Shown piece after piece: positions 1,187 to 23,476 of a stretch of 64,000 nucleotides of DNA. The stretch spans positions 806,001 through 870,000 of the forward strand of contig NZ_CP129672.1 in the NCBI RefSeq assembly GCF_030505195.1. Reading direction: 5' to 3'. The notes beneath the pieces were generated by a model. The model did no database searches. It had not been told where the DNA came from and worked only from the letters and a program-made list of their open reading frames with translations. This DNA is from Comamonas testosteroni (lineage in GTDB: Bacteria > Pseudomonadota > Gammaproteobacteria > Burkholderiales > Burkholderiaceae_C). The stretch's first letter is position 1, and each line of letters begins with the position of its first letter. Made by a program: the position numbers and the translations under genes.

Positions 1187-3334
1187 TTACTGGCCGGCGT
1201 TGGTGGCGATGCAGCGGTGGTCGTGACCGGCCACGCCGTAATCGAGGCGAACCTTGAAGCGCGCACCGTCGGTATCGAATGCGTCCTGCTGCTCGATGAA
1301 AGGCGTATCCACGCCATCGAGGAAGGCGACCTCCAGGGCTGCACCTTCATTGACATCGGTGAAGGCGTAATGGCGAGTGCCCTCCAGGCGGGGGCTGCCA
1401 ACGATGTCGCGGAACATGCCCAGGCCCACGTTGGGCGTCAAGGGGTTCACATCGGTGCTGATCTCGTACTCGGACTTGTTGATCAGCTTGGCGCGGCCCT
1501 CCAGACCCACGGGGCCCAGCCACACGGCGGGGCGCAGATCCAGGAAGTCGTTGCCGCTCACGTCCTTGTGCTTGGCCATGAGGATGCGGAAGGCTTCAAA
1601 GGCAGCACTGGAAGGTGCCGCAGCTTCCGCCACCACGTTGCCGTGCGATGCATGCAGCAAAGGCTTGCCGTCCAGCATCGTCGGGCCCAGGCCGTTGTTT
1701 TCACCCAGCAGCGCATAGACATCAGCCTCGACCGTGCGGGCGGCACTGCGCCCCATGGCGGCAGCCTGGTCAGTGAACGCGCCCAGGTCATCGTTGATGA
1801 TCATTTCGCGCGACAGATTGATGATGAAGCCCTTGGTTGCGGCTGCAATGCTGGACTTTTCACCATCGGGGATGTGCACATTCTTGTACTCGCCGTTTTC
1901 GCCCTTGGGCTGCAGGTTGCCCAGCGAGCCGACACGGAAACGATGGTGCTCACGGAAGTCCGACACCTGACCGCGTTTGCAGAAACGCTGCCAGGTCAGC
2001 GCCTGCACGGCGTATGCCGACAGCAGCACGCGGTGAATGGCATCGGTGAGCAGAATGGGGAAATCGCTGGTGGACTGAGTGAAGGCTGCAGCGACGAGCT
2101 CGCGCTTGTCCTTGCCCTTGGCACTGACGCCAGCGGATTCCAGGGAGGCTCGGGCCATTTCCACCAGGCTCATGCCACGGTATGGATTGCCGCCGTGGGC
2201 AGAAACCTGCTCCTTGGTGGCGTAGCCGGCACGAACCAGCAACGCGGATACAGCAGCATCGCGGCGCTTATCGCCCTCATCTTCCACAGTGGTGACGTTC
2301 ACGCCAGCCACAGGCGTTGCCTGAGAGCCCAGGTGAGCCAGCAGGCGAGCACCAGCGGCAGCGGCAGAAACGGAATGATCATCTTCGCACTGGCGCTGCA
2401 GATCCTGCACACCTTCACGACCAGCCCAGGCAGCAAACGATGCACGAATGGACTGACGACGGGTCTGATCAGCAGCCAGCACAGCAGCTTGCGCAGCGGC
2501 GTCGGGCACGGGCGTGGAAGCGGCAGCGACGGGAGCAGCTGCAGCTGGTGCGGCGCTTCCGCCACCAGCTGCCGGCGCGCCAGATGCGCCAATGGCGTTC
2601 ATCAGCACATGGGTGCGGTTCTTTTTCATGTTGTCCTCATCAGGAGCGGATTGCGCGGCAGGCGCCGCAGAAGTACCCCCTGCCCGCTGCAAAGCAGCTG
2701 GCAGGGAGCGGTAACGGGAAAGGGGCAAGTCACGGGCAGCGCTGGCCGCGACGGGTGACGCATCGGTGATGGAGTCAATGAAGCCGTCTGCCAAGGCCTC
2801 GGCAGCGGTAAAGAAATGGTCCTTGCCGTCGGACAGCAAGGCCATGACGGCATCGTGATTGCCGGTCTTGCGGGCATAGCTGGTCGCCATGGCAGCTGCC
2901 CAGGTGTCCAACTGGTCGGCCATGTCACGCAGCTCGACCGCATTGCCAGCTGCATAAGTCCAGGGCGCATGCACCATGAGCATGGCGTTTTCAGCCATGC
3001 ACACCTTGTCGCCGCCCATGGCGATCAGGCTGGCAATGCTGAAAGCCATGCCATCCACTTCAGTGGTGATGGTGGCCGGGTGGCGCTTCATGGCGTTGTA
3101 GATGGCAAAGCCGTCTGGAACGCTGCCGCCCAGGCTGTTGATGCGCACGGTGATGGCCTGCACATCCAGGGCCTGCAACTCCGCCACAAAGTCGCGGGCG
3201 TTGGTGGTCTCTTCCCACCAGCTCTCACCGATATCGCCGTAGATCAGGATCTCGGCGGCAGACTGCACACCCGCAGCCGCTGCAGCCTGCGCTGTCTTGC
3301 GGCGGATGGCGAACCACTTTTGCGATGTACTCAT
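1187..3334 (-). CDS. Prohead protease (ClpP type) fused to Mu gpT-type major capsid protein
   Basis: 715 aa. Residues about 25-200 are a ClpP/S14-fold serine protease: 'NSLGGSVPDG', the nucleophile region 'AFSIASLIAMGG' and the histidine in 'MLMVHAPW'. Residues about 230-330 are a low-complexity Ala/Pro-rich linker that could serve as scaffold. Residues about 430-715 look like the Mu gpT-type capsid shell protein ('REMIINDDLGAFTDQAAAMGR'). In lambda the protease/scaffold and shell are separate genes; here one polypeptide would assemble and then be self-cut. The start lies only four bases from a strong hairpin (3338-3385). Unbroken reading frame, so the fusion is not a sequencing split. Confidence 0.85.
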   Translation of the reverse strand: MSTSQKWFAIRRKTAQAAAAAGVQSAAEILIYGDIGESWWEETTNARDFVAELQALDVQAITVRINSLGGSVPDGFAIYNAMKRHPATITTEVDGMAFSIASLIAMGGDKVCMAENAMLMVHAPWTYAAGNAVELRDMADQLDTWAAAMATSYARKTGNHDAVMALLSDGKDHFFTAAEALADGFIDSITDASPVAASAARDLPLSRYRSLPAALQRAGGTSAAPAAQSAPDEDNMKKNRTHVLMNAIGASGAPAAGGGSAAPAAAAPVAAASTPVPDAAAQAAVLAADQTRRQSIRASFAAWAGREGVQDLQRQCEDDHSVSAAAAGARLLAHLGSQATPVAGVNVTTVEDEGDKRRDAAVSALLVRAGYATKEQVSAHGGNPYRGMSLVEMARASLESAGVSAKGKDKRELVAAAFTQSTSDFPILLTDAIHRVLLSAYAVQALTWQRFCKRGQVSDFREHHRFRVGSLGNLQPKGENGEYKNVHIPDGEKSSIAAATKGFIINLSREMIINDDLGAFTDQAAAMGRSAARTVEADVYALLGENNGLGPTMLDGKPLLHASHGNVVAEAAAPSSAAFEAFRILMAKHKDVSGNDFLDLRPAVWLGPVGLEGRAKLINKSEYEISTDVNPLTPNVGLGMFRDIVGSPRLEGTRHYAFTDVNEGAALEVAFLDGVDTPFIEQQDAFDTDGARFKVRLDYGVAGHDHRCIATNAGQ

Positions 3335-3337
3335 GAA

Positions 3338-3385
3338 AAACTGCCTGCATTCGTTGTCGCCTCAAGGGCGGAATGCAGGCAGTTT
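3338..3385 (-). promoter_or_regulatory. Perfect 15-bp hairpin directly upstream of the capsid start
   Basis: Arms AAACTGCCTGCATTC (3338-3352) and GAATGCAGGCAGTTT (3371-3385) are perfectly complementary with an 18-nt loop. Read on the minus strand, the stem is followed by TTTTT and then CATG, so it has the look of an intrinsic terminator and also hides the only candidate ribosome binding sequence (GCAGGCAG) of the protease-capsid gene. It may stop read-through from the AT-rich insert or control capsid translation. Confidence 0.65.
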
Positions 3386-3397
3386 CTGGGTTTCGCT

Positions 3398-3429
3398 GTC
3401 TCATTTCATGCCGTGAAATGAGACTTTCT
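3398..3429. promoter_or_regulatory. Dyad element, copy 1 (GTCTCATT-N11-AATGAGAC)
   Basis: Arms 3398-3405 and 3417-3424 with an 11-nt spacer containing CATGCCG, followed by TTTCT. It is 29/32 identical to the element at 7232-7263. It lies about 65 bases upstream of the protease-capsid start, between that gene and the AT-rich insert. Could be an operator for the Mor-type activator encoded at 7263-7643, or a hairpin terminator reading rightwards. Function is inference; the duplication is seen directly. Confidence 0.6.
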
Positions 3430-3543
3430 TTAAGTAAATATCAACGGATCATCTTCTTATATAAAAACTAGAGGCGTCACATGAGAAAGTATCAACATAG
3501 TCAATTATTTATTTCTCTATACTACCTATAGCTACGATCCTGA

Positions 3544-4569
3544 CTAAGCCTTATGTTTACGAGGTAATCCAATTTTAAATGAGTTAGTTTGATATTCAAT
3601 ACCCATGTGTTTGTGAATACTGCTAGCCACATGGGAATAATCAACATAACCATTATTAATACGAAGAACTTCACGAATTAAAAATGTACCAATTCCACTC
3701 CCTTTTTTAGCGGTATTTGTAGACAGCTTCCCAGAGAATCCTTCTTCAAAAATTCGAGGTATTTCGTAATCATAAATTCGCAAACTAGTCATTGCAAAAT
3801 TAATACTTACGTAGTTCTCATCCTCCGAAATTGTTATTTCAATTGTGGAATTTGGTTTTGTATACTTAGCTGCATTATCTAACACATGATAAAGTGCAAC
3901 ATGAATTGACTCATAGTCAAAAAAACCTGTCGCAGTACTTTCAGTAATTTTCACTATCACGCTCTTATCCGTGAAATCCTGAAAAAACAAATACAAGATA
4001 TTCATCAATACCTTATGTATTTGATGATATTTTTTCTGAAGCGTGGGGTCAGGGTTAAATAATTTCTTGAACACCGAGAATTCGGTCTTCATTGATGCAC
4101 TAGCTTTGGCAATAGCTAATAAGGACAAAGCAGCTTCATAGCTGCTGTTTGTTATTATTCCTTGCACAATTTTAGTGTGCCCGCTTGTGCGATCGCTCAG
4201 AAGCTGCTGAGGTACTAACGAATATATCTCTTGAATAATATGAGCATTCAATGATGTCAAATTATGAATCAATCTGCCCGTATTCTTAAAGCTTGACTCT
4301 TGCTGCTTTTCAATTGATCTCATCACAAATTCAATCGAATTATGAATTGCTTTGTGAGATGTCTTAAACTTCTGAGAACTCTTCAAATAATCAGACCTAC
4401 TTGATGAAGCAAAGCTTACTCCATTTTTTGATTTAATTACTCCGAACCTTACCCTACCATCCCTTAATAAAGTAGATTCGTTCTTAATCTCATTTATTAA
4501 TGGCTTCTCGTTATCTAAAAGATTGCAGTAAATAATATCATTATTATTGTTAACTAATCTGTAGCGCAT
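3544..4569 (-). CDS. Soluble histidine-kinase-like ATPase in AT-rich prophage insert
   Basis: 341 aa without membrane segments. C-terminal half is a GHKL/HATPase_c domain: N-box 'HVLDNAAKYT' (228-237), F-box-like 'RIFEEGFSG' (272-280) and G2 box 'GSGIGTFLIREVL' (290-302). The usual DxGxG of the G1 box is replaced by 'FAMTSLRIYD', so nucleotide binding may be altered. A candidate phospho-accepting His is in 'LIHNLTSLNAH' (H102), within a helical dimerisation-like region (about 75-125). Residues 1-70 match nothing I recognise. Starts one base after the stop of the receiver gene, so the two are co-translated. Base composition is far more AT-rich than every neighbour, which points to recent transfer. 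Confidence 0.8.
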   Translation of the reverse strand: MRYRLVNNNNDIIYCNLLDNEKPLINEIKNESTLLRDGRVRFGVIKSKNGVSFASSSRSDYLKSSQKFKTSHKAIHNSIEFVMRSIEKQQESSFKNTGRLIHNLTSLNAHIIQEIYSLVPQQLLSDRTSGHTKIVQGIITNSSYEAALSLLAIAKASASMKTEFSVFKKLFNPDPTLQKKYHQIHKVLMNILYLFFQDFTDKSVIVKITESTATGFFDYESIHVALYHVLDNAAKYTKPNSTIEITISEDENYVSINFAMTSLRIYDYEIPRIFEEGFSGKLSTNTAKKGSGIGTFLIREVLRINNGYVDYSHVASSIHKHMGIEYQTNSFKIGLPRKHKA

Positions 4570-4570
4570 A

Positions 4571-5218
4571 TTATTTCCCTAAGAGCAATTCCTCAACCGT
4601 TTTTTCAAACTCGTAGGGATCAGCATTCTTTGAAAGAAAAGAATCTGCCTTTCTTAAAGCATCATGAAATCTATTACCATCCTCTATTACTGAGTAAATA
4701 ACAATCTTTTTCTCTGGGTATTTGTCTTTAAGCGCCAACGCCAAGCCAAGACCTTCATCTTTAAATCCTAATGCTGCACCGACACCTTGAATATCAATAA
4801 AAATAATGTCAGCTTCTAAGATTTCTCTATCAATGAGACTCTTAGCATCCTTCACGTGTTTTGTAAAAATCCACCCACTGTTGTAGAGTATCTTAACAAC
4901 TTTGAATTTTGTATCATCATCAATAAATAAAATTCGTTTATGCTGCTTGATTGAGTCTAAGCTCTTCACCACCTCATCAGTTTTTGAAGGGCTTCCATTA
5001 TCCATGTTATGTACGTTCACAGTATTATTAATACTCACCGGTGCAGGATGATTTTCATCATTATTTGATAACTTAATCCCAAATAATGTCTTAACCATAT
5101 TACCAAATATTTTCCACAAAGCTGTCAAAACCAATATTCCAATCCCGCTAAATACCCATTCTCTATTTTCAATTACGGTATCCACTGTATGCCTCACAAG
5201 TTGGTTTGTGTAGCACAT
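4571..5218 (-). CDS. Membrane-anchored receiver-domain protein in AT-rich prophage insert
   Basis: 215 aa from ATG 5216-5218 (a TTG three codons earlier is possible). Residues about 20-45 form one membrane helix ('GIGILVLTALW'), followed by a charged linker and, from about residue 93, a CheY-like receiver: 'ILFIDDD' acidic pocket (D100, D101), phospho-acceptor D142 in 'IIFIDIQG', switch Ser176 in 'IVIYSV' and Lys197 in 'SFLSKNAD'. All key receiver residues are present; there is no DNA-binding output domain. Partner of the kinase-like gene that follows. A membrane-bound receiver with a soluble kinase reverses the usual layout, suggesting the membrane is the effector site. Possible defence or superinfection-exclusion role; no known family name assigned. 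Confidence 0.8.
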   Translation of the reverse strand: MCYTNQLVRHTVDTVIENREWVFSGIGILVLTALWKIFGNMVKTLFGIKLSNNDENHPAPVSINNTVNVHNMDNGSPSKTDEVVKSLDSIKQHKRILFIDDDTKFKVVKILYNSGWIFTKHVKDAKSLIDREILEADIIFIDIQGVGAALGFKDEGLGLALALKDKYPEKKIVIYSVIEDGNRFHDALRKADSFLSKNADPYEFEKTVEELLLGK

Positions 5219-5415
5219 TGTAACCAATGAATTTCAGAATCAATTTCTATCCGCGCTTGTGACTGACACCATACGCTTGCAAAAAATTCATACTTATGCC
5301 AGCCATGCTTTCGCGCTTTATCAAAAGTCTTACTACTTCGGCAATCTCCGCAAGTAGCCGTTGATATACCCCGGCTAAGCTTCCTTCGATAAGCAACATT
5401 GGCAACGACAGAGTC
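5194..5415 (-). pseudogene. Open frame without a start codon ahead of the insert operon
   Basis: 73 sense codons between TAG (5416-5418) and TGA (5194-5196) with no ATG, GTG or TTG near its beginning. The product would hold 'TATCGDCRSSKTFDKARKHG' and then 'FFASVWCQSQ', Cys-pair and Gly-Trp features typical of small phage zinc-binding proteins. It overlaps the first codons of the receiver gene in another frame. Probably the tail of a gene broken when the insert entered, or a gene using a rare start. Low certainty. Confidence 0.3.
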
Positions 5416-5441
5416 CTAGAAAGGCGCGAAATTAGTCATTC

Positions 5442-6959
5442 TTACTCTGACAAACCATGCCCTCGAACTCTGCGCTGATTGCCTCCAGCAGGATCAGATG
5501 ACATCTTCAGTCCTCTTTCTGCTGCCTCCTGCCGATATTGCTGAATCTGATCAAGCACCTCACGCGGATTGCCACCACGGCGACGAATGACTTCCACCTC
5601 GCTTGCAAATCCGGCTTGCACCAGCCTCTCCCAGGCATTGGCTTCCTTGAGGGGGTCGATCCAGGGCATGGACTGCCCGATCAAAAGGCAATCATCTTCT
5701 GAGCCTGGCTCAACATCATCAGGCATGGGCAAAGCGCCACTCAGATGGGCAACGCGCACAAACATCTCCCAGACAGGCAGACTGAACTGACCTGCAAAGT
5801 CATCGGCCAGCACGGCATAGTGCACCCACTGCTCCACCAACTCTTGGCGCAGCGAACTGTAGGTGCCGCCATAGTCTCGGCTGATGCTGCTGTAACTGGC
5901 GCCTACGCCTGCCGCATAGGCCTTGAGCTGGCCCGAGCGCCAGGCCACCAGATTGGGGTTGGGTCGATTGGTATCGATGAGGCCCACCTCTTCGCCCACC
6001 ATCAGGTCATCGAAGATCATGCCCGGCTGCAGGCGCAAGTCACGCGGCAGCGGGTTGCCCTTGTCGTCTTTCTCACGGGTATCTGCACCTGGGTCAAAGC
6101 CCTCGACACCAGGCAAGCGCTTGACGTAGGCCGCCATGCTGGCCGCAATCTTGGCGGCGATGCGCTCGCTTTCCTCATAGTCTTTCAGATCCTCCACGCG
6201 GTTGAGCACGCTCGCCAGCTCGCTGATGCCACGCCACTGATGCAGTCGGTCCATGGTGGAGACATGCAGCATGTTGCCCGCAGGAATGGTTTTGAGATCT
6301 GCTGGCGTGATCCAGGCGCCTGACTCGCGCGGGTCACGCTTGAAGACGTGATAGGCCATGGGTCGCCCCCAGTCATTTACCTGAATGCCTTGGCGAATTT
6401 TGCGGCTGAGATCGGTGAAGTCAAGCGGCACAAAGTCAGGCTCAAGAATCTCCAGGCTGAAAGGCACCTTGCTGCCATGCACCAAGCCCGGCGCATTGCC
6501 GACTACCTGCTGCGCAAACACTTCCCCATCGCGCAGCCAGGTGTAGGCAGCCATGCGCTGGGCCTGCGACCAATGCATGCGCCCAGTCACCTCGGGCGCT
6601 TTGCTCCACTTGCGGTGCAACTGGCGCAGCTGATCGGCATATTCTTTGTGGATGGTTCCATCGCGGCGGCGCGGCTGGGGCTCGATGCCGATGCCGTTGG
6701 GGCCCACCACGTTGTTCACCAAGGTGCGTAGCACACCACGGGTGATATCGTGATTGCGCTCCAGATAGCGCGCGTGGTTGCGCAATGCAGAAGCGCTGCG
6801 GCCCACCAGCAGATTGGGCGACGGGTTGGTGTTGCGGTTCTTGCGCAGCCTGCTGGGCTGTGCGGCCTCGTAATGAGAAAGCACCTTCCTGGCTTGGGCG
6901 CGGCGCAAGGCCGCCTCGGGTGCCACGTAGCTCACGAGACTATCAATGATGTTGGCCAT
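5442..6959 (-). CDS. Phage portal protein, lambda gpB family
   Basis: 505 aa. The N-terminal 'LRNHARYLERNHDITRGVLR' and 'NNVVGPNGIGIEPQP' blocks, followed by 'WLRDGEVFAQQV', are characteristic of the lambda-family portal. Twelve copies would form the DNA entry vertex on which terminase docks. Good ribosome binding site AAGGAG 8 bases ahead of ATG. It follows gpW by 11 bases. In lambda-like phages the protease gene comes next; here the AT-rich insert intervenes. Confidence 0.93.
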   Translation of the reverse strand: MANIIDSLVSYVAPEAALRRAQARKVLSHYEAAQPSRLRKNRNTNPSPNLLVGRSASALRNHARYLERNHDITRGVLRTLVNNVVGPNGIGIEPQPRRRDGTIHKEYADQLRQLHRKWSKAPEVTGRMHWSQAQRMAAYTWLRDGEVFAQQVVGNAPGLVHGSKVPFSLEILEPDFVPLDFTDLSRKIRQGIQVNDWGRPMAYHVFKRDPRESGAWITPADLKTIPAGNMLHVSTMDRLHQWRGISELASVLNRVEDLKDYEESERIAAKIAASMAAYVKRLPGVEGFDPGADTREKDDKGNPLPRDLRLQPGMIFDDLMVGEEVGLIDTNRPNPNLVAWRSGQLKAYAAGVGASYSSISRDYGGTYSSLRQELVEQWVHYAVLADDFAGQFSLPVWEMFVRVAHLSGALPMPDDVEPGSEDDCLLIGQSMPWIDPLKEANAWERLVQAGFASEVEVIRRRGGNPREVLDQIQQYRQEAAERGLKMSSDPAGGNQRRVRGHGLSE

Positions 6960-6970
6960 ATGTGAGCTCC

Positions 6971-7192
6971 TTAATCGCGGTCAAAACTGGCCAGGCCGTA
7001 ACCACGGCCGCCAAATGTGGCCGCGCCCTGGCGCGACTTCTGCGCAAGCAGCCGCGCGATATGAGAGCGCGCCTTGAGCAGCGCATCGGTGGTCTGATAT
7101 GTGACGTTGCGCCCCTGATAGGAAACGCTGAGCTCGCCGCTGGCAATCGCCAGGTCGATCTGATCCAGATGCTCTTGGGTAATGATGGTCAT
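6971..7192 (-). CDS. gpW-like head-tail connector
   Basis: 73 aa from MTIITQEHLD; an upstream ATG would add eight residues of less likely sequence. 'GELSVSYQGRNVTYQTTDAL' followed by 'ARSHIARL' reproduces the lambda gpW pattern (basic, helix-hairpin-helix with a Tyr/Arg-rich centre), and length is the same as gpW (about 68-80 aa). gpW joins the filled head to FII. Sits between terminase/Mor and portal as in lambda (A-W-B order). Confidence 0.8.
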   Translation of the reverse strand: MTIITQEHLDQIDLAIASGELSVSYQGRNVTYQTTDALLKARSHIARLLAQKSRQGAATFGGRGYGLASFDRD

Positions 7193-7231
7193 GTGTTGCC
7201 TGCCTTTGTGCAGCACGCTACGAGGTTTGCC

Positions 7232-7263
7232 GTCTCATTGCATGCCGACAAATGAGACTTTCT
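7232..7263. promoter_or_regulatory. Dyad element, copy 2 (GTCTCATT-N11-AATGAGAC)
   Basis: Arms 7232-7239 and 7251-7258, spacer 11 nt with CATGCCG, then TTTCT up to the stop codon of the Mor-type gene. Differs from the copy at 3398-3429 at three of 32 positions. It lies 40 bases upstream of gpW. Both copies are followed, on the minus strand, by a GC-AAACC-like string and a GCAGGCA sequence just ahead of a start codon, so a larger leader seems duplicated. Confidence 0.6.
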
Positions 7264-7643
7264 CAAGGCGCCTTGGCGCTGGCCACACCGATGCGCGCAG
7301 ATCCAGCCTTGGCAGAAATGACCCGGTAGAGCGTGGCACGCTGGATGCCGTGGCGCCGCATGACCTCCAGATGGTTGGTGCCGTCAAACTCCTCACAGAT
7401 AGCCTTGTTGCGCTCGGCCTTGCTGGGCGAGGGAATGTAGATGGACGCCCCACGCCCGCCCATACGCATGCCGCCGTAGCGCTTGCGCAGGCCATGCACA
7501 AAGGCCTGGGCCACCTTCAAGGCCTCGACCTCACTGATGCCCAGCTCTTGCCGCGCGATCTCCACCATATCGCACTCGAGTTGCAACACGGAATCGGCCA
7601 CTTGTGCGGCGTCTGCTTGGCTCTTGTTAGTATTCACTGTCAT
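7263..7643 (-). CDS. Mor/C-family transcription activator
   Basis: 126 aa from ATG 7641-7643, which overlaps the terminase stop (ATGA) and has GGAG upstream. The C-terminal 60 residues fit the Mor family: 'GGRGASIYIPS', then an HTH-like 'NHLEVMRRHGIQRATLYRVI'. In phage Mu, Mor and C bind dyad sites and switch on middle and late genes. Placed between terminase and gpW, this protein could drive the head operon through the dyads at 7232-7263 and 3398-3429. No nuclease or other domain. Confidence 0.8.
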   Translation of the reverse strand: MTVNTNKSQADAAQVADSVLQLECDMVEIARQELGISEVEALKVAQAFVHGLRKRYGGMRMGGRGASIYIPSPSKAERNKAICEEFDGTNHLEVMRRHGIQRATLYRVISAKAGSARIGVASAKAP

Positions 7644-9712
7644 AGTCTGCTGCTCCATTCTTCGCTGGCAAAAGAGGATCGGGGGCGGCGCTGGGCCGCT
7701 GGCTTTGGTGGGATGGACGGAGTGACAGCGCGAGGTGCAGGCTCTTCCAAAACTGGAGCTGCATCGCTGGCATCTGTTTCAGGCGGGCTGAATAGGTCGC
7801 GCGGCGGTTGCACAGCCTGCTCAAGCAACTGCCACTTGGCGTCAGACCATTTGTGCAGCCCTTGGGCCATGGCGGCATGCAGCGCATAGTTGCGGCAGTC
7901 CAAGATCTCATTCCGCTGCCGGCGCTTCATCCAGCGAAACACATCCTTGCCGTTGATCCGCTGCAGCACACGGTGCTCAGCAGTCAGCTGCTCAAACCAT
8001 TCGCGTGGCAGCTCTTCGCTAAAGTGCAGATAGCCAGGTCCGGGTTCCTTGATGGCAAGTTGGCCTAGCAGCAGATCCTTGGCGTTATCAACGCCCAGAG
8101 TCCACAGCTTGACCCCGCGCGCAATCTTGCGGCCACGATAGTTGACCTCCTGCAGCGTGACGGGCCCCACCAGAGCGATGCCAGGCCGGCCCTTGATAGC
8201 GCGCAAATTGGGAATGACGTTCTGCGTCTTGGTCACCCAGTTGTAGACCGCCTGCGTCTGGTCGCTGCTGTCCACATTGGTGGCCGTGATGCCCATGCTG
8301 CTGCCGTTCCACAGCTGCTTGTAACGGCTTTGCAGATAGGCGGTGACCGGCTCCCAATCGCTTTCATTGGCAGGGTTGCCCTCGATGATGTGGTGATCCA
8401 CCACCCAGCTCTCCAGCCCTCGCCCCCAGGCCCAGACGCTGATATCCCACCAGGTGTGCTGCACGTCCACGCTGGCCGTGAGCATCAAGCCACCCACGGG
8501 CACAGTCTTCAACTTGTAGGGCTCGGCGCGGGCCTGCAGCGCATGTTCATCAGCGGCTTCGCCCTTGAGCTCCCAGGCCTGGCCCAGAGTTTCGTTGGTG
8601 AAGCTGGTCATGGGGCCGGCATCACCCTCTTTCAATGCACGGTCGGCCTTCTCGAATTCGTCTGCAATGGTGGACCAGGGGCGCTGCGGGCTATAGGCAG
8701 CCCAGATATGCACGCCCACCGTGCGCGGTGGCCGGCAGGGTTCGCCGCTGGCATCGCGCCAAATGCGATCAGCGCCAAAGCGCTTGCCTGAGCGACGGCA
8801 CACCCAGGCGCCGACCAGGGGCCAACCGCCCGGCATGTAGTCGGCCTGGGTGATGGAGTCGCGGCAATGTGGGCAGACATGGCGCACGGTCTCGGGCTTG
8901 CCGCGTTCCCACTTGAAGCCGTGCAGCACCGAAGGCCCACCCCAGGTCAGCGTGTGCTCTACGCCGCAGCGGGGGCACTCGATGAGGTAATCAACTTCAT
9001 CTTCTGAATCCTCGCAGGCGCGTGAGACGTGGCACAGCCCCATGATGCCCGGCGTGCTGCCGCCCACGAACTTGGGATATGGAGCCCCCTCCAACCGCCC
9101 TTTGGCCAAGCTGCCGGGAGAGCCCGCCGTCTTGTCCTTGCTGGCACCAATGGTCTGGTCAAAGGCCGTCCACTCATCAAGGATTGCCACCGCGACCGTG
9201 ATACGGCGGTATGCCCGCGCAGCCTTGCCGCCCAGCAGGTGCAGCACGCTGTCACGGAATGGCTTGTATTTGATGGTCTCTTCGATGCGCCCACCTCGCT
9301 TGCGCGCAGCGAGAACAGACGGCACACCGTTCACAGGGTCGAGCAGCGGCTCGATTTCCGACTTGACGAAGCTGTCGCGGTCATCATCTGTCGGCTGCCA
9401 CAGCGCTTGCTTGCGCCGGCGGTGGGCGATGTTGTAGCAAATAAAGGCCGTGATCATCTTGCTATAGCCCACCCGTTTGGACTTCTTGACCGCCAGTTCC
9501 TCGATGCGGTCATCGCTCATGAAATCCAGAATGCCGATCTGAAAGGGCCAGGCCACCCAACCACCCTTTTGGTGGCTGGACTCACCAGCCAACAGGAAAT
9601 TCTCAGCGGCCCATTCCGACAGGGTTTGCGGAGCCTCAGCCCGCATGCTGGACATTCCCAGCGCCGCGGCTGCCTTGATGGCCTCCATGGCTTCAATGGT
9701 GACAACGCTCAT
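7640..9712 (-). CDS. Terminase large subunit, lambda GpA family
   Basis: 690 aa, usual length for GpA (about 640-700). N-terminal 'LSEWAAENFLL' and 'QIGILDFMSDDRIEELAVKK' mark the GpA ATPase; 'KSKRVGYSK' is the adenine/Walker-like region; 'AVAILDEWTAFD' carries the Walker B/catalytic acids; 'CPRCG' and 'CPHC' form the conserved zinc site; the nuclease domain follows ('SVDVQHTWWDISVWAWGRG'). C-terminal about 45 residues are Pro-rich and may bind portal. Cuts and packages DNA with the Nu1-type small subunit encoded just upstream (four-base overlap). Confidence 0.95.
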   Translation of the reverse strand: MSVVTIEAMEAIKAAAALGMSSMRAEAPQTLSEWAAENFLLAGESSHQKGGWVAWPFQIGILDFMSDDRIEELAVKKSKRVGYSKMITAFICYNIAHRRRKQALWQPTDDDRDSFVKSEIEPLLDPVNGVPSVLAARKRGGRIEETIKYKPFRDSVLHLLGGKAARAYRRITVAVAILDEWTAFDQTIGASKDKTAGSPGSLAKGRLEGAPYPKFVGGSTPGIMGLCHVSRACEDSEDEVDYLIECPRCGVEHTLTWGGPSVLHGFKWERGKPETVRHVCPHCRDSITQADYMPGGWPLVGAWVCRRSGKRFGADRIWRDASGEPCRPPRTVGVHIWAAYSPQRPWSTIADEFEKADRALKEGDAGPMTSFTNETLGQAWELKGEAADEHALQARAEPYKLKTVPVGGLMLTASVDVQHTWWDISVWAWGRGLESWVVDHHIIEGNPANESDWEPVTAYLQSRYKQLWNGSSMGITATNVDSSDQTQAVYNWVTKTQNVIPNLRAIKGRPGIALVGPVTLQEVNYRGRKIARGVKLWTLGVDNAKDLLLGQLAIKEPGPGYLHFSEELPREWFEQLTAEHRVLQRINGKDVFRWMKRRQRNEILDCRNYALHAAMAQGLHKWSDAKWQLLEQAVQPPRDLFSPPETDASDAAPVLEEPAPRAVTPSIPPKPAAQRRPRSSFASEEWSSRL

Positions 9713-22228: not shown

Positions 22229-23300
22229 AGATGGAGATCCTATGGGTCTCGCGGGCACTCGCCTTTCCTTCAAACACAACGCCTTCTACTACCGCCACAG
22301 GGACGGCCGGTGGGAGCGCATGGGCACCGATGTCCGTACCGCGAAGGAGCGAGCTGCCGTCTACAACAGCCCAGCTGACAACTATGGCACCACCGCGTAC
22401 TGGCTGGATCAATTCTTGGTGGACTGCCAACAACGGGTGTCCATAAAAGACCTCGCGCCGCGGACTCTCTCCGACTACACAAAAGACTCCGAGCCGCTCA
22501 AAGTGTTCTTTGGAGCTATGCTCCCTGAGCACATTGAGCCCCACCACGTCCAAGCCTATTTGGACGCAGGCTCTGCGGCTGAGCGTGGAGTGCGCGCCAA
22601 TCGGGAAAAGGCATGTCTGAGCTCGTGCCTGTCCTGGCTGATTCGCACAAACAAATGCCCCGGCCTCAAGATCAACCCGTGTATGCAAAAAAGCGGCACG
22701 CGCGAAAACTCGGAGAAAAAGCGCGACCGGTATGTCACCCATCAGGAATATCAGGAGGTCTATGCCTTGGCCTGGCCCCAGGTGCGCGTGCTGATGGAGC
22801 TGACCTACCGCACGCTACAGCGCCCGGAAAGCGACATCATCTACTGGACGCCAAAAGTCCTCGCACGCGACCCACACACGGGAAATCGCATCATCACCTT
22901 CGAGCAGGGAAAGACAGGCACAAGGCTGAAGATTGCGATGACCGAGGGTTTGGAAAAGCTTATCAACCGTGCCGTGGGCACAAATCCACAGATGGACCAA
23001 CCTCTGGTGCACACCCGAGCGGGCACTGGGTACACCTACGGTGGCATCAATTCCATGCTCGGCAAAGCCATAAGGACCGCAAACGAGATCAGGGCATCCA
23101 AGAATATCCCGCCCATGGCCTCATTCGGCTTCCGGGACCTAAAGGGCAAAGGTGCCACTGATATGTGGCTGGCTGGGACACCTATCGAGCAGATTCAGTT
23201 GCTCTGCGGCCACTCAGACAAGGCAACAACGGAGCGCTACATCAAGGCTCGATGGCGGGCGACTGCTCAGCCCAACGAGACAGCCGTAATGACTGTATGA
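22212..23300 (+). CDS. Tyrosine-recombinase integrase
   Basis: 362 aa. N-terminal Arg/Lys-rich arm-binding part ('MGRARKDG'), core-binding domain 70-160, catalytic domain with Arg in 'LTYRTLQRPESDI', second Arg in 'FGFRDLKGKGATD', 'LLCGHSDKATTERYI' with the His and the nucleophile Tyr. The residue usually His in HxxR is Phe/Gly here, as in related phage enzymes. Start could also be ATG 22242, which has GGAG. Points at the tRNA-Lys 3' end, the expected att site. Confidence 0.93.
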   Translation: MGRARKDGDPMGLAGTRLSFKHNAFYYRHRDGRWERMGTDVRTAKERAAVYNSPADNYGTTAYWLDQFLVDCQQRVSIKDLAPRTLSDYTKDSEPLKVFFGAMLPEHIEPHHVQAYLDAGSAAERGVRANREKACLSSCLSWLIRTNKCPGLKINPCMQKSGTRENSEKKRDRYVTHQEYQEVYALAWPQVRVLMELTYRTLQRPESDIIYWTPKVLARDPHTGNRIITFEQGKTGTRLKIAMTEGLEKLINRAVGTNPQMDQPLVHTRAGTGYTYGGINSMLGKAIRTANEIRASKNIPPMASFGFRDLKGKGATDMWLAGTPIEQIQLLCGHSDKATTERYIKARWRATAQPNETAVMTV

Positions 23301-23353
23301 CCACTGTATGAGATCACTGGATATGAGACGCGTCACATATACGGTCACATAAA

Positions 23354-23396
23354 GCATAAAAGCCGCTACAACTTTAATAGCTGTAGCGGCTTATGC
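23354..23396. terminator. Bidirectional terminator between int and tRNA-Lys
   Basis: AAGCCGCTACA (23360-23370) and TGTAGCGGCTT (23382-23392) form an 11-bp perfect stem; flanking GCATAA/TTATGC lengthen it. It would end both the integrase transcript and the tRNA transcript. Confidence 0.8.
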
Positions 23397-23400
23397 ATTC

Positions 23401-23476
23401 TGGTGGGTCCTGCGAGATTCGAACTCGCGACCAACGGATTAAAAGTCCGCTGCTCTACCGACTGAGCTAAAGACCC
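23401..23476 (-). tRNA. tRNA-Lys (anticodon TTT), prophage attachment site
   Basis: 76 nt on the minus strand: 5' GGGTCTT acceptor arm, D-arm GCTC..GAGC, anticodon loop CTTTTAA (TTT), T-arm GCGAG-TTCGAAT-CTCGC, 3' AGGACCC-A and encoded CCA. The 3' end faces the integrase, so the attR core should lie in its 3' half; the tRNA is intact because the phage restores it. The second att copy is outside the window. Confidence 0.95.

What the first reader, a model, noticed from the sequence alone, without database searches (positions are those of the whole stretch)
3430..5440. AT-rich two-gene insert: soluble kinase-like ATPase plus membrane-anchored receiver in the head operon
Portal and protease/capsid genes are normally adjacent in lambda-like phages; here about 2 kb of strikingly AT-rich DNA splits them. 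The receiver protein has all receiver residues (D100/D101, D142, S176, K197) and a membrane helix but no output domain; the kinase-like partner has N and G2 boxes but an altered G1 box and no membrane segment. This is the reverse of usual two-component design and fits a membrane-acting defence or exclusion switch carried by the prophage. Not a system I can name (not Detocs, which I recall as having a nucleosidase effector).
Basis: partly seen in the sequence, partly recalled or inferred. Interest (0 to 1): 0.85.

Follow-up and report, generated by a model that had tools for sequence, protein, structure and literature searches.

The report
Prophage-borne kinase-receiver pair, candidate phage defence
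A dormant virus in a bacterial chromosome carries, in a slot between its head genes where some sister viruses carry other extra genes, a two-gene signalling pair that is listed as a candidate anti-virus system of unknown mechanism; it probably passes a phosphate from a soluble sensor to a membrane-anchored switch.

Summary
Between portal and ClpP-capsid genes lie 2107 bp, mostly 35% GC (flanks 61-63%), coding a membrane-anchored receiver (A) and a soluble histidine-kinase-like protein (B). The pair has a catalogue name: both match PADLOC's phage-defence candidate PDC-M43 (E 1e-72 and 8e-117). In 18 of 18 loci of a genome scan B follows A, and A and B distances correlate (r 0.84; 0 of 2000 permutations as high). 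Presence is patchy (3 of 369 genomes of the class) and on prophages, plasmids and other mobile DNA. B's phospho-site His and A's receiver residues are invariant in the close homologues, but B's G1-box Asp is Met. New here: the slot is a cargo site. In 58 distinct relatives the portal-ClpP gap is under 300 bp in 48 and 608-4796 bp in 10; sister phages hold a GT4-conflict/NACHT protein or unknown genes there, a more distant one a PARIS-AriA-like ATPase, others non-defence genes. Cargo ends beside a conserved, covarying hairpin. Most likely defence cargo in which B phosphorylates A and A acts at the membrane. Phosphotransfer, membrane effect and defence are inferred; a branch of A without a membrane helix speaks against a universal pore.

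The parts
4571..5185 (-). Gene A (PDC-M43A): N-terminal membrane-type helix, disordered linker, receiver domain; alternative upstream starts reach 5227
   Evidence: (PDLC04646 1.1e-72)
3544..4569 (-). Gene B (PDC-M43B): N-terminal beta domain, DHp-like helices with H102, HATPase domain with Met in the G1 box
   Evidence: (PDLC04647 7.9e-117)
3335..5441 (.). AT-rich cargo interval between portal and ClpP-capsid; variable in relatives
3398..3424 (-). Hairpin at the downstream edge of the cargo; conserved phage element, not part of the pair
5442..6959 (-). Flank: portal protein (lambda family)
   Evidence: PF05136
1187..3334 (-). Flank: ClpP-type protease fused to capsid protein
   Evidence: PF00574, PF25209

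Best explanation
The pair is a PDC-M43 defence-type cassette carried as cargo in a variable slot of a lambda-like prophage. Most likely working: B, a cytosolic histidine-kinase-like protein with a small N-terminal beta domain, detects a sign of infection, autophosphorylates on H102 with a nucleotide bound in a pocket that lacks the usual G1 Asp, and passes the phosphate to D145 of A. A has no DNA-binding or enzymatic output, so its phosphorylated receiver most simply rearranges A in the membrane through the conserved N-terminal helix, which harms the infected cell or blocks the incoming phage. Shown: genes, folds by homology and model, unit, conservation, cargo slot. Inferred: trigger, phosphotransfer, membrane effect, defence.
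For: PADLOC candidate models match both proteins over nearly full length. B follows A in 18 of 18 genome loci and both occur in 3 of 3 plasmid records with A. A and B distances correlate, r 0.84, 0 of 2000 permutations. H102 is kept in 25 of 25 aligned B proteins, the acidic pair, D145 and K200 in 25 of 25 aligned A proteins. Helix motif [FM]SGxG in 117 of 121 rows. Patchy presence, 3 of 369 genomes. Cargo slot with conflict/defence-type genes in some relatives. More PADLOC families near the pair (165 in 69 proteins and 58 in 70) than in the control (13 in 127).
Against: No activity is shown by any search. The G1-box Asp is missing throughout the family. A of Bacteroidota lacks a membrane helix. 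No promoter above chance was found, so expression in the lysogen is open. No phage record of 50,697 carries A or B, so it is rare in phages. Nine of ten neighbours scanned singly had no PADLOC match, and family counts are inflated by redundant type I models. Several cargos of relatives are not defence-like.
Confidence: 0.5

Rival explanations
1. B is a pseudokinase or nucleotide sensor: it binds A and gates it by nucleotide or phage-protein binding, without phosphotransfer or as a phosphatase only.
For: G1-box Asp replaced by Met in 117 of 117 close homologues and in 22 of 22 family members with coverage, by Ser in two distant ones; Asn follows H102 where kinases have Glu/Asp, except in the two distant ones. 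DivL, named in the call's title as a tyrosine kinase, is among the structural matches; that it is a pseudokinase is recalled.
Against: H102, N232, K235, the G2-box glycines and the receiver's phospho-site residues remain invariant, as expected if phosphoryl chemistry is used. CusS, a histidine kinase, has Asn at the G1 position in the alignment, so Asp is not indispensable.
Confidence: 0.22
2. The pair is prophage cargo that benefits the host or excludes phages at entry in another way (envelope stress signalling, receptor or injection block) rather than a harm-the-cell defence.
For: Several cargos at the slot look secreted, lipoprotein-like or structural. A sits at the membrane in this branch.
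Against: Catalogued and found near defence genes more than in the control, which does not separate entry block from abortive infection.
Confidence: 0.18
3. The pair regulates the phage's own late genes or lysis.
For: It lies in the head operon in the same direction.
Against: The same unit sits on plasmids and in other bacterial contexts; most relatives of this phage lack it; no output domain.
Confidence: 0.06
4. It is an ordinary regulatory two-component system picked up by chance.
For: HATPase and receiver folds resemble those of sensor kinases and regulators.
Against: No membrane sensor kinase, no output domain, patchy presence, tight pairing. In the same 369 genomes the nine other matches of the B profile at 1e-15 cover only the HATPase part of other frames; only 5 candidates per genome were scored.
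Confidence: 0.04

Closest known systems
PDC-M43 (PADLOC-DB 2.0.0 phage defence candidate, genes A and B)
   Same: Both proteins match over nearly full length; gene order and adjacency as in its other members found here
   Different: Carried in a prophage head operon; no function is published in the library searched
Detocs (recalled: kinase, receiver and a receiver-nucleosidase effector)
   Same: Works alike in outline: kinase and receiver proteins used for defence
   Different: No enzymatic effector in A; no third gene kept beside the pair in the loci examined; no Detocs model among the PADLOC matches, and it was not checked whether the library holds one
Orthodox two-component systems
   Same: DHp/CA and receiver folds
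   Different: No membrane helix in the kinase, no output domain in the receiver, G1 Asp replaced
Defence hotspot of P2-like phages between gpA and portal gpQ (PMC9122126, passages seen)
   Same: Variable accessory genes at a fixed phage gene junction
   Different: Here the slot lies between portal and ClpP-capsid of a lambda-like phage, and cargo is of mixed kinds

Membership tests
PDC-M43 | Gene A matches the PDC-M43A models | tested here: met
   PDLC04646 1.1e-72, residues 16-215 on 2-198 of 203
PDC-M43 | Gene B matches the PDC-M43B models | tested here: met
   PDLC04647 7.9e-117, residues 2-338 on 4-344 of 347
PDC-M43 | A and B adjacent, same strand | tested here: met
   Window: one base apart; 18 of 18 genome loci
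PDC-M43 | Protects against phages | not testable with these tools
   A candidate by name; no test found in the held papers
Detocs | Effector with a nucleosidase/phosphorylase domain (recalled) | tested here: not met
   A has no such domain by Pfam or in the model. Neighbour lists showed only the 25 commonest families, so a distant third gene is not excluded
Orthodox two-component system | Membrane-bound sensor kinase | tested here: not met
   No membrane segment in the window's B or in 112 of 117 homologues
Orthodox two-component system | Response regulator with an output domain | tested here: not met
   No Pfam domain above cut-off in A; the model shows helix, linker and receiver only
Active histidine kinase | Complete ATP-binding boxes (N, G1, G2) and phospho-His | tested here: inconclusive
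   His, N and G2 boxes kept, G1 Asp replaced by Met; model confidence low at H102 and at 287-293

The most novel reading that the evidence does not exclude
PDC-M43 is a phosphorelay defence without transcription or a soluble effector enzyme: a cytosolic kinase with an altered nucleotide pocket phosphorylates a membrane-anchored receiver, and the receiver itself is the membrane effector. The prophage carries it in a so far undescribed kind of cargo slot between portal and protease, beside a conserved RNA hairpin, in which sister phages swap unrelated defence genes.
Probability: 0.28. Interest if true: 0.8.

Novelty: new member of a known kind. Interest (0 to 1): 0.5.

Why it matters
PDC-M43 is listed but, as far as the searches reach, uncharacterised. 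Its invariant residues, the family-wide G1 change and the branch without a membrane helix give direct mutational tests of whether a two-component switch can itself be a membrane effector. The portal-ClpP slot, filled in 10 of 58 distinct relatives, is a place to look for further accessory and defence genes in lambda-like prophages.

Tried and rejected
Set aside: housekeeping two-component system and phage self-regulator (see rivals). A profile of A found no solved structure at 1e-3 by sequence. A and B found nothing in 50,697 phage records. A near-identity search of the E. coli plasmid pair in the E. coli genome collection found nothing. Rfam over window 3000-8000 found nothing up to E 0.5. 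The sigma-70 scan was at chance level, 9 against 8.6 expected; by eye TTGATT, 15 bases, TACAAT lies just upstream of the GTG start, an unsupported lead. The N-terminal beta domain of B was not searched alone and the A-B complex was not modelled. Full-length B without A was sought only in 369 genomes with 5 candidates scored in each and in IMG/VR. H110, invariant in close homologues, was rejected as phospho-site because distant ones lack it. Hydrophobic moments of the ends of helix-less A proteins (0.04-0.50) settle nothing. Papers: searches listed no study of the pair; seen were one legend section and passages of PMC13092281, passages of PMC11514479 and of PMC9122126, otherwise listings only; the library lacks most subscription journals. 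Detocs facts are recalled.

Full report
What is there. The window holds part of a lambda-like prophage: head genes on the minus strand, an integrase-family match at window 22734-23249 (G000:C1:828734-829249; above the family's cut-off) and a tRNA-Lys at 23401-23476, the likely attachment target (inference). Between the portal gene (5442-6959) and a ClpP-capsid fusion (1187-3334) lie 2107 bp, GC 0.351 for 3425-5441 against 0.633 and 0.612 outside. They code two genes in the direction of the head operon, A then B, one base apart.

The unit. A scan of one genome per species found 18 loci with A, and B lies directly after A in 18 of 18; A of L024 and B of L021 are cut by contig ends. In plasmid records A has hits in 3 and B has hits in the same 3 (Shewanella baltica, E. 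coli, Kosakonia; in the last, B runs across the record's start). In IMG/VR two contigs hold the pair, one found from either gene and one from B only. Distances of A and B correlate over 22 loci (r 0.844; 0 of 2000 permutations reach it, largest 0.57) and over 12 close ones (r 0.812; 0 of 2000). A was found in 3 of 369 genomes of the class, the window's own among them; the other two are distant relatives, also with a B-like partner; the 14 control genomes gave none.

Name. PADLOC-DB lists the genes as PDC-M43A and PDC-M43B. No held paper contains the name PDC-M43. PMC11514479 uses PDC for 'phage defence candidate' (passages). A legend in PMC13092281 lists HATPase and REC among domains of predicted, not yet validated systems; whether that is this pair I cannot tell.

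Neighbours. Of 139 neighbour proteins from 21 loci, 69 matched 165 PADLOC families in all and 70 matched 58 at 1e-8, among those shown type I restriction-modification subunits, a type II methyltransferase, AbiLi, AriA, BnzB, HEC-05 and PDC-M36 (only the 25 commonest families are shown in each; the figures count families over each batch, not proteins hit). The control, 127 proteins from 18 stretches at preset places in 9 genomes, gave 13 families, some of them defence-like too. Redundant type I models inflate the first figures, and the control genomes are not those of the loci. Of ten neighbours scanned singly nine had no match at 1e-5 and one was a type I specificity subunit. I read this as modest support. 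Pfam shows integrases, transposases and conjugation proteins, and also housekeeping genes.

The slot. In 58 distinct relatives from IMG/VR (portal and ClpP each at least 50% identical) the portal-ClpP gap is under 300 bp in 48, 300-500 in none and 608-4796 bp in 10, or 9 if the near-twins L041 and L042 count once. Sister phages whose flanking DNA is 90-94% identical hold different things: L034 a 1206-aa protein on the opposite strand (GT4-conflict PF20706 9e-64; NACHT 1.4e-5, just under its cut-off; no PADLOC match), L033 four small frames, L112 a frame of about 230 aa at a contig end. More distant relatives hold an AriA-like ATPase (AriAB model 3.8e-46; L109, L065), a C92-type peptidase (L063), a protein with membrane segments by eye (L059), and long or small frames without defence matches (L096, L102, L042, L090). 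In the bacterial family the portal was found in 8 of 399 genomes at 1e-40, 3 candidates scored per genome; of seven stretches read, five show both portal and ClpP, 144-214 bases apart in four and 828 in one.

The boundary. Homology resumes at window 3424-3425 in 7 of 12 relatives compared (L033, L034, L035, L037, L038, L040, L112), at 3401 in L039, and only at 3258-3316 in four more distant ones. Position 3424 is the outer edge of a hairpin, 3398-3424. A model from six such hairpins finds it at window 3390-3434 and a second copy at 7224-7265, and on the + strand in 55 of 61 relatives searched, five of which supplied seeds. Pair counts show 127 double-changed cells against 46.3 in shuffles (0 of 500 as high) and 3-9 when the partners are slid; the number of pairs with a change on both sides (6) is not above shuffles (119 of 500). 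That alignment is fitted to the structure and includes reverse-strand matches of the palindrome; stems of different sequence were seen without such fitting, though that script looked for perfect stems. No Rfam match. The hairpin is also in phages without cargo, so it is a phage element beside the slot.

Mechanism. The conserved chemistry suggests that phosphoryl transfer from H102 to D145 is under selection. The missing G1 Asp leaves the nucleotide, or activity at all, open. With no other output, the membrane helix is the likeliest acting part in this branch. Against a universal pore: A of Bacteroidota (L025-L028) has no membrane helix but a short basic N-terminus and a hydrophobic C-terminal stretch. 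Expression in the lysogen is unproven.

Verdict. A well-formed member of an uncharacterised defence-candidate family in a variable prophage slot.

Noticed in passing
window 3390-3434 and 7224-7265 (-): A conserved hairpin with compensatory changes, present at two places of the head operon and on the + strand in 55 of 61 related phages searched; no Rfam match.
   Followed up: partly
window 3338-3385 (-): A second long hairpin with an AAACTGCCTGCATTC stem ends 4 bases before the ClpP start; kept in the close relatives, with other sequences in distant ones.
   Followed up: no
L034 5363-8983 (-): A sister phage carries a 1206-aa GT4-conflict/NACHT protein in the same slot on the opposite strand.
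   Followed up: partly
L109 7752-9362 (+): An AriA-like ATPase (PADLOC AriAB 3.8e-46) in the portal-ClpP slot of a more distant phage.
   Followed up: partly
L207, L209, L211, L213: The helix motif KEW-FSGxG at or near the start of frames without a receiver, two of them only 64-66 aa: a shared membrane module.
   Followed up: partly
window about 5197-5415 (-): A stop-free stretch of about 70 codons without a usual start upstream of gene A; perhaps a gene remnant.
   Followed up: no
window 22734-23476: Integrase-family match next to a tRNA-Lys gene, the likely right end of the prophage.
   Followed up: partly
L030 and L031: Distant receiver plus HATPase pairs without a membrane helix, with Glu or Asp after the phospho-His and Ser at the G1 position: perhaps a sister family.
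   Followed up: partly
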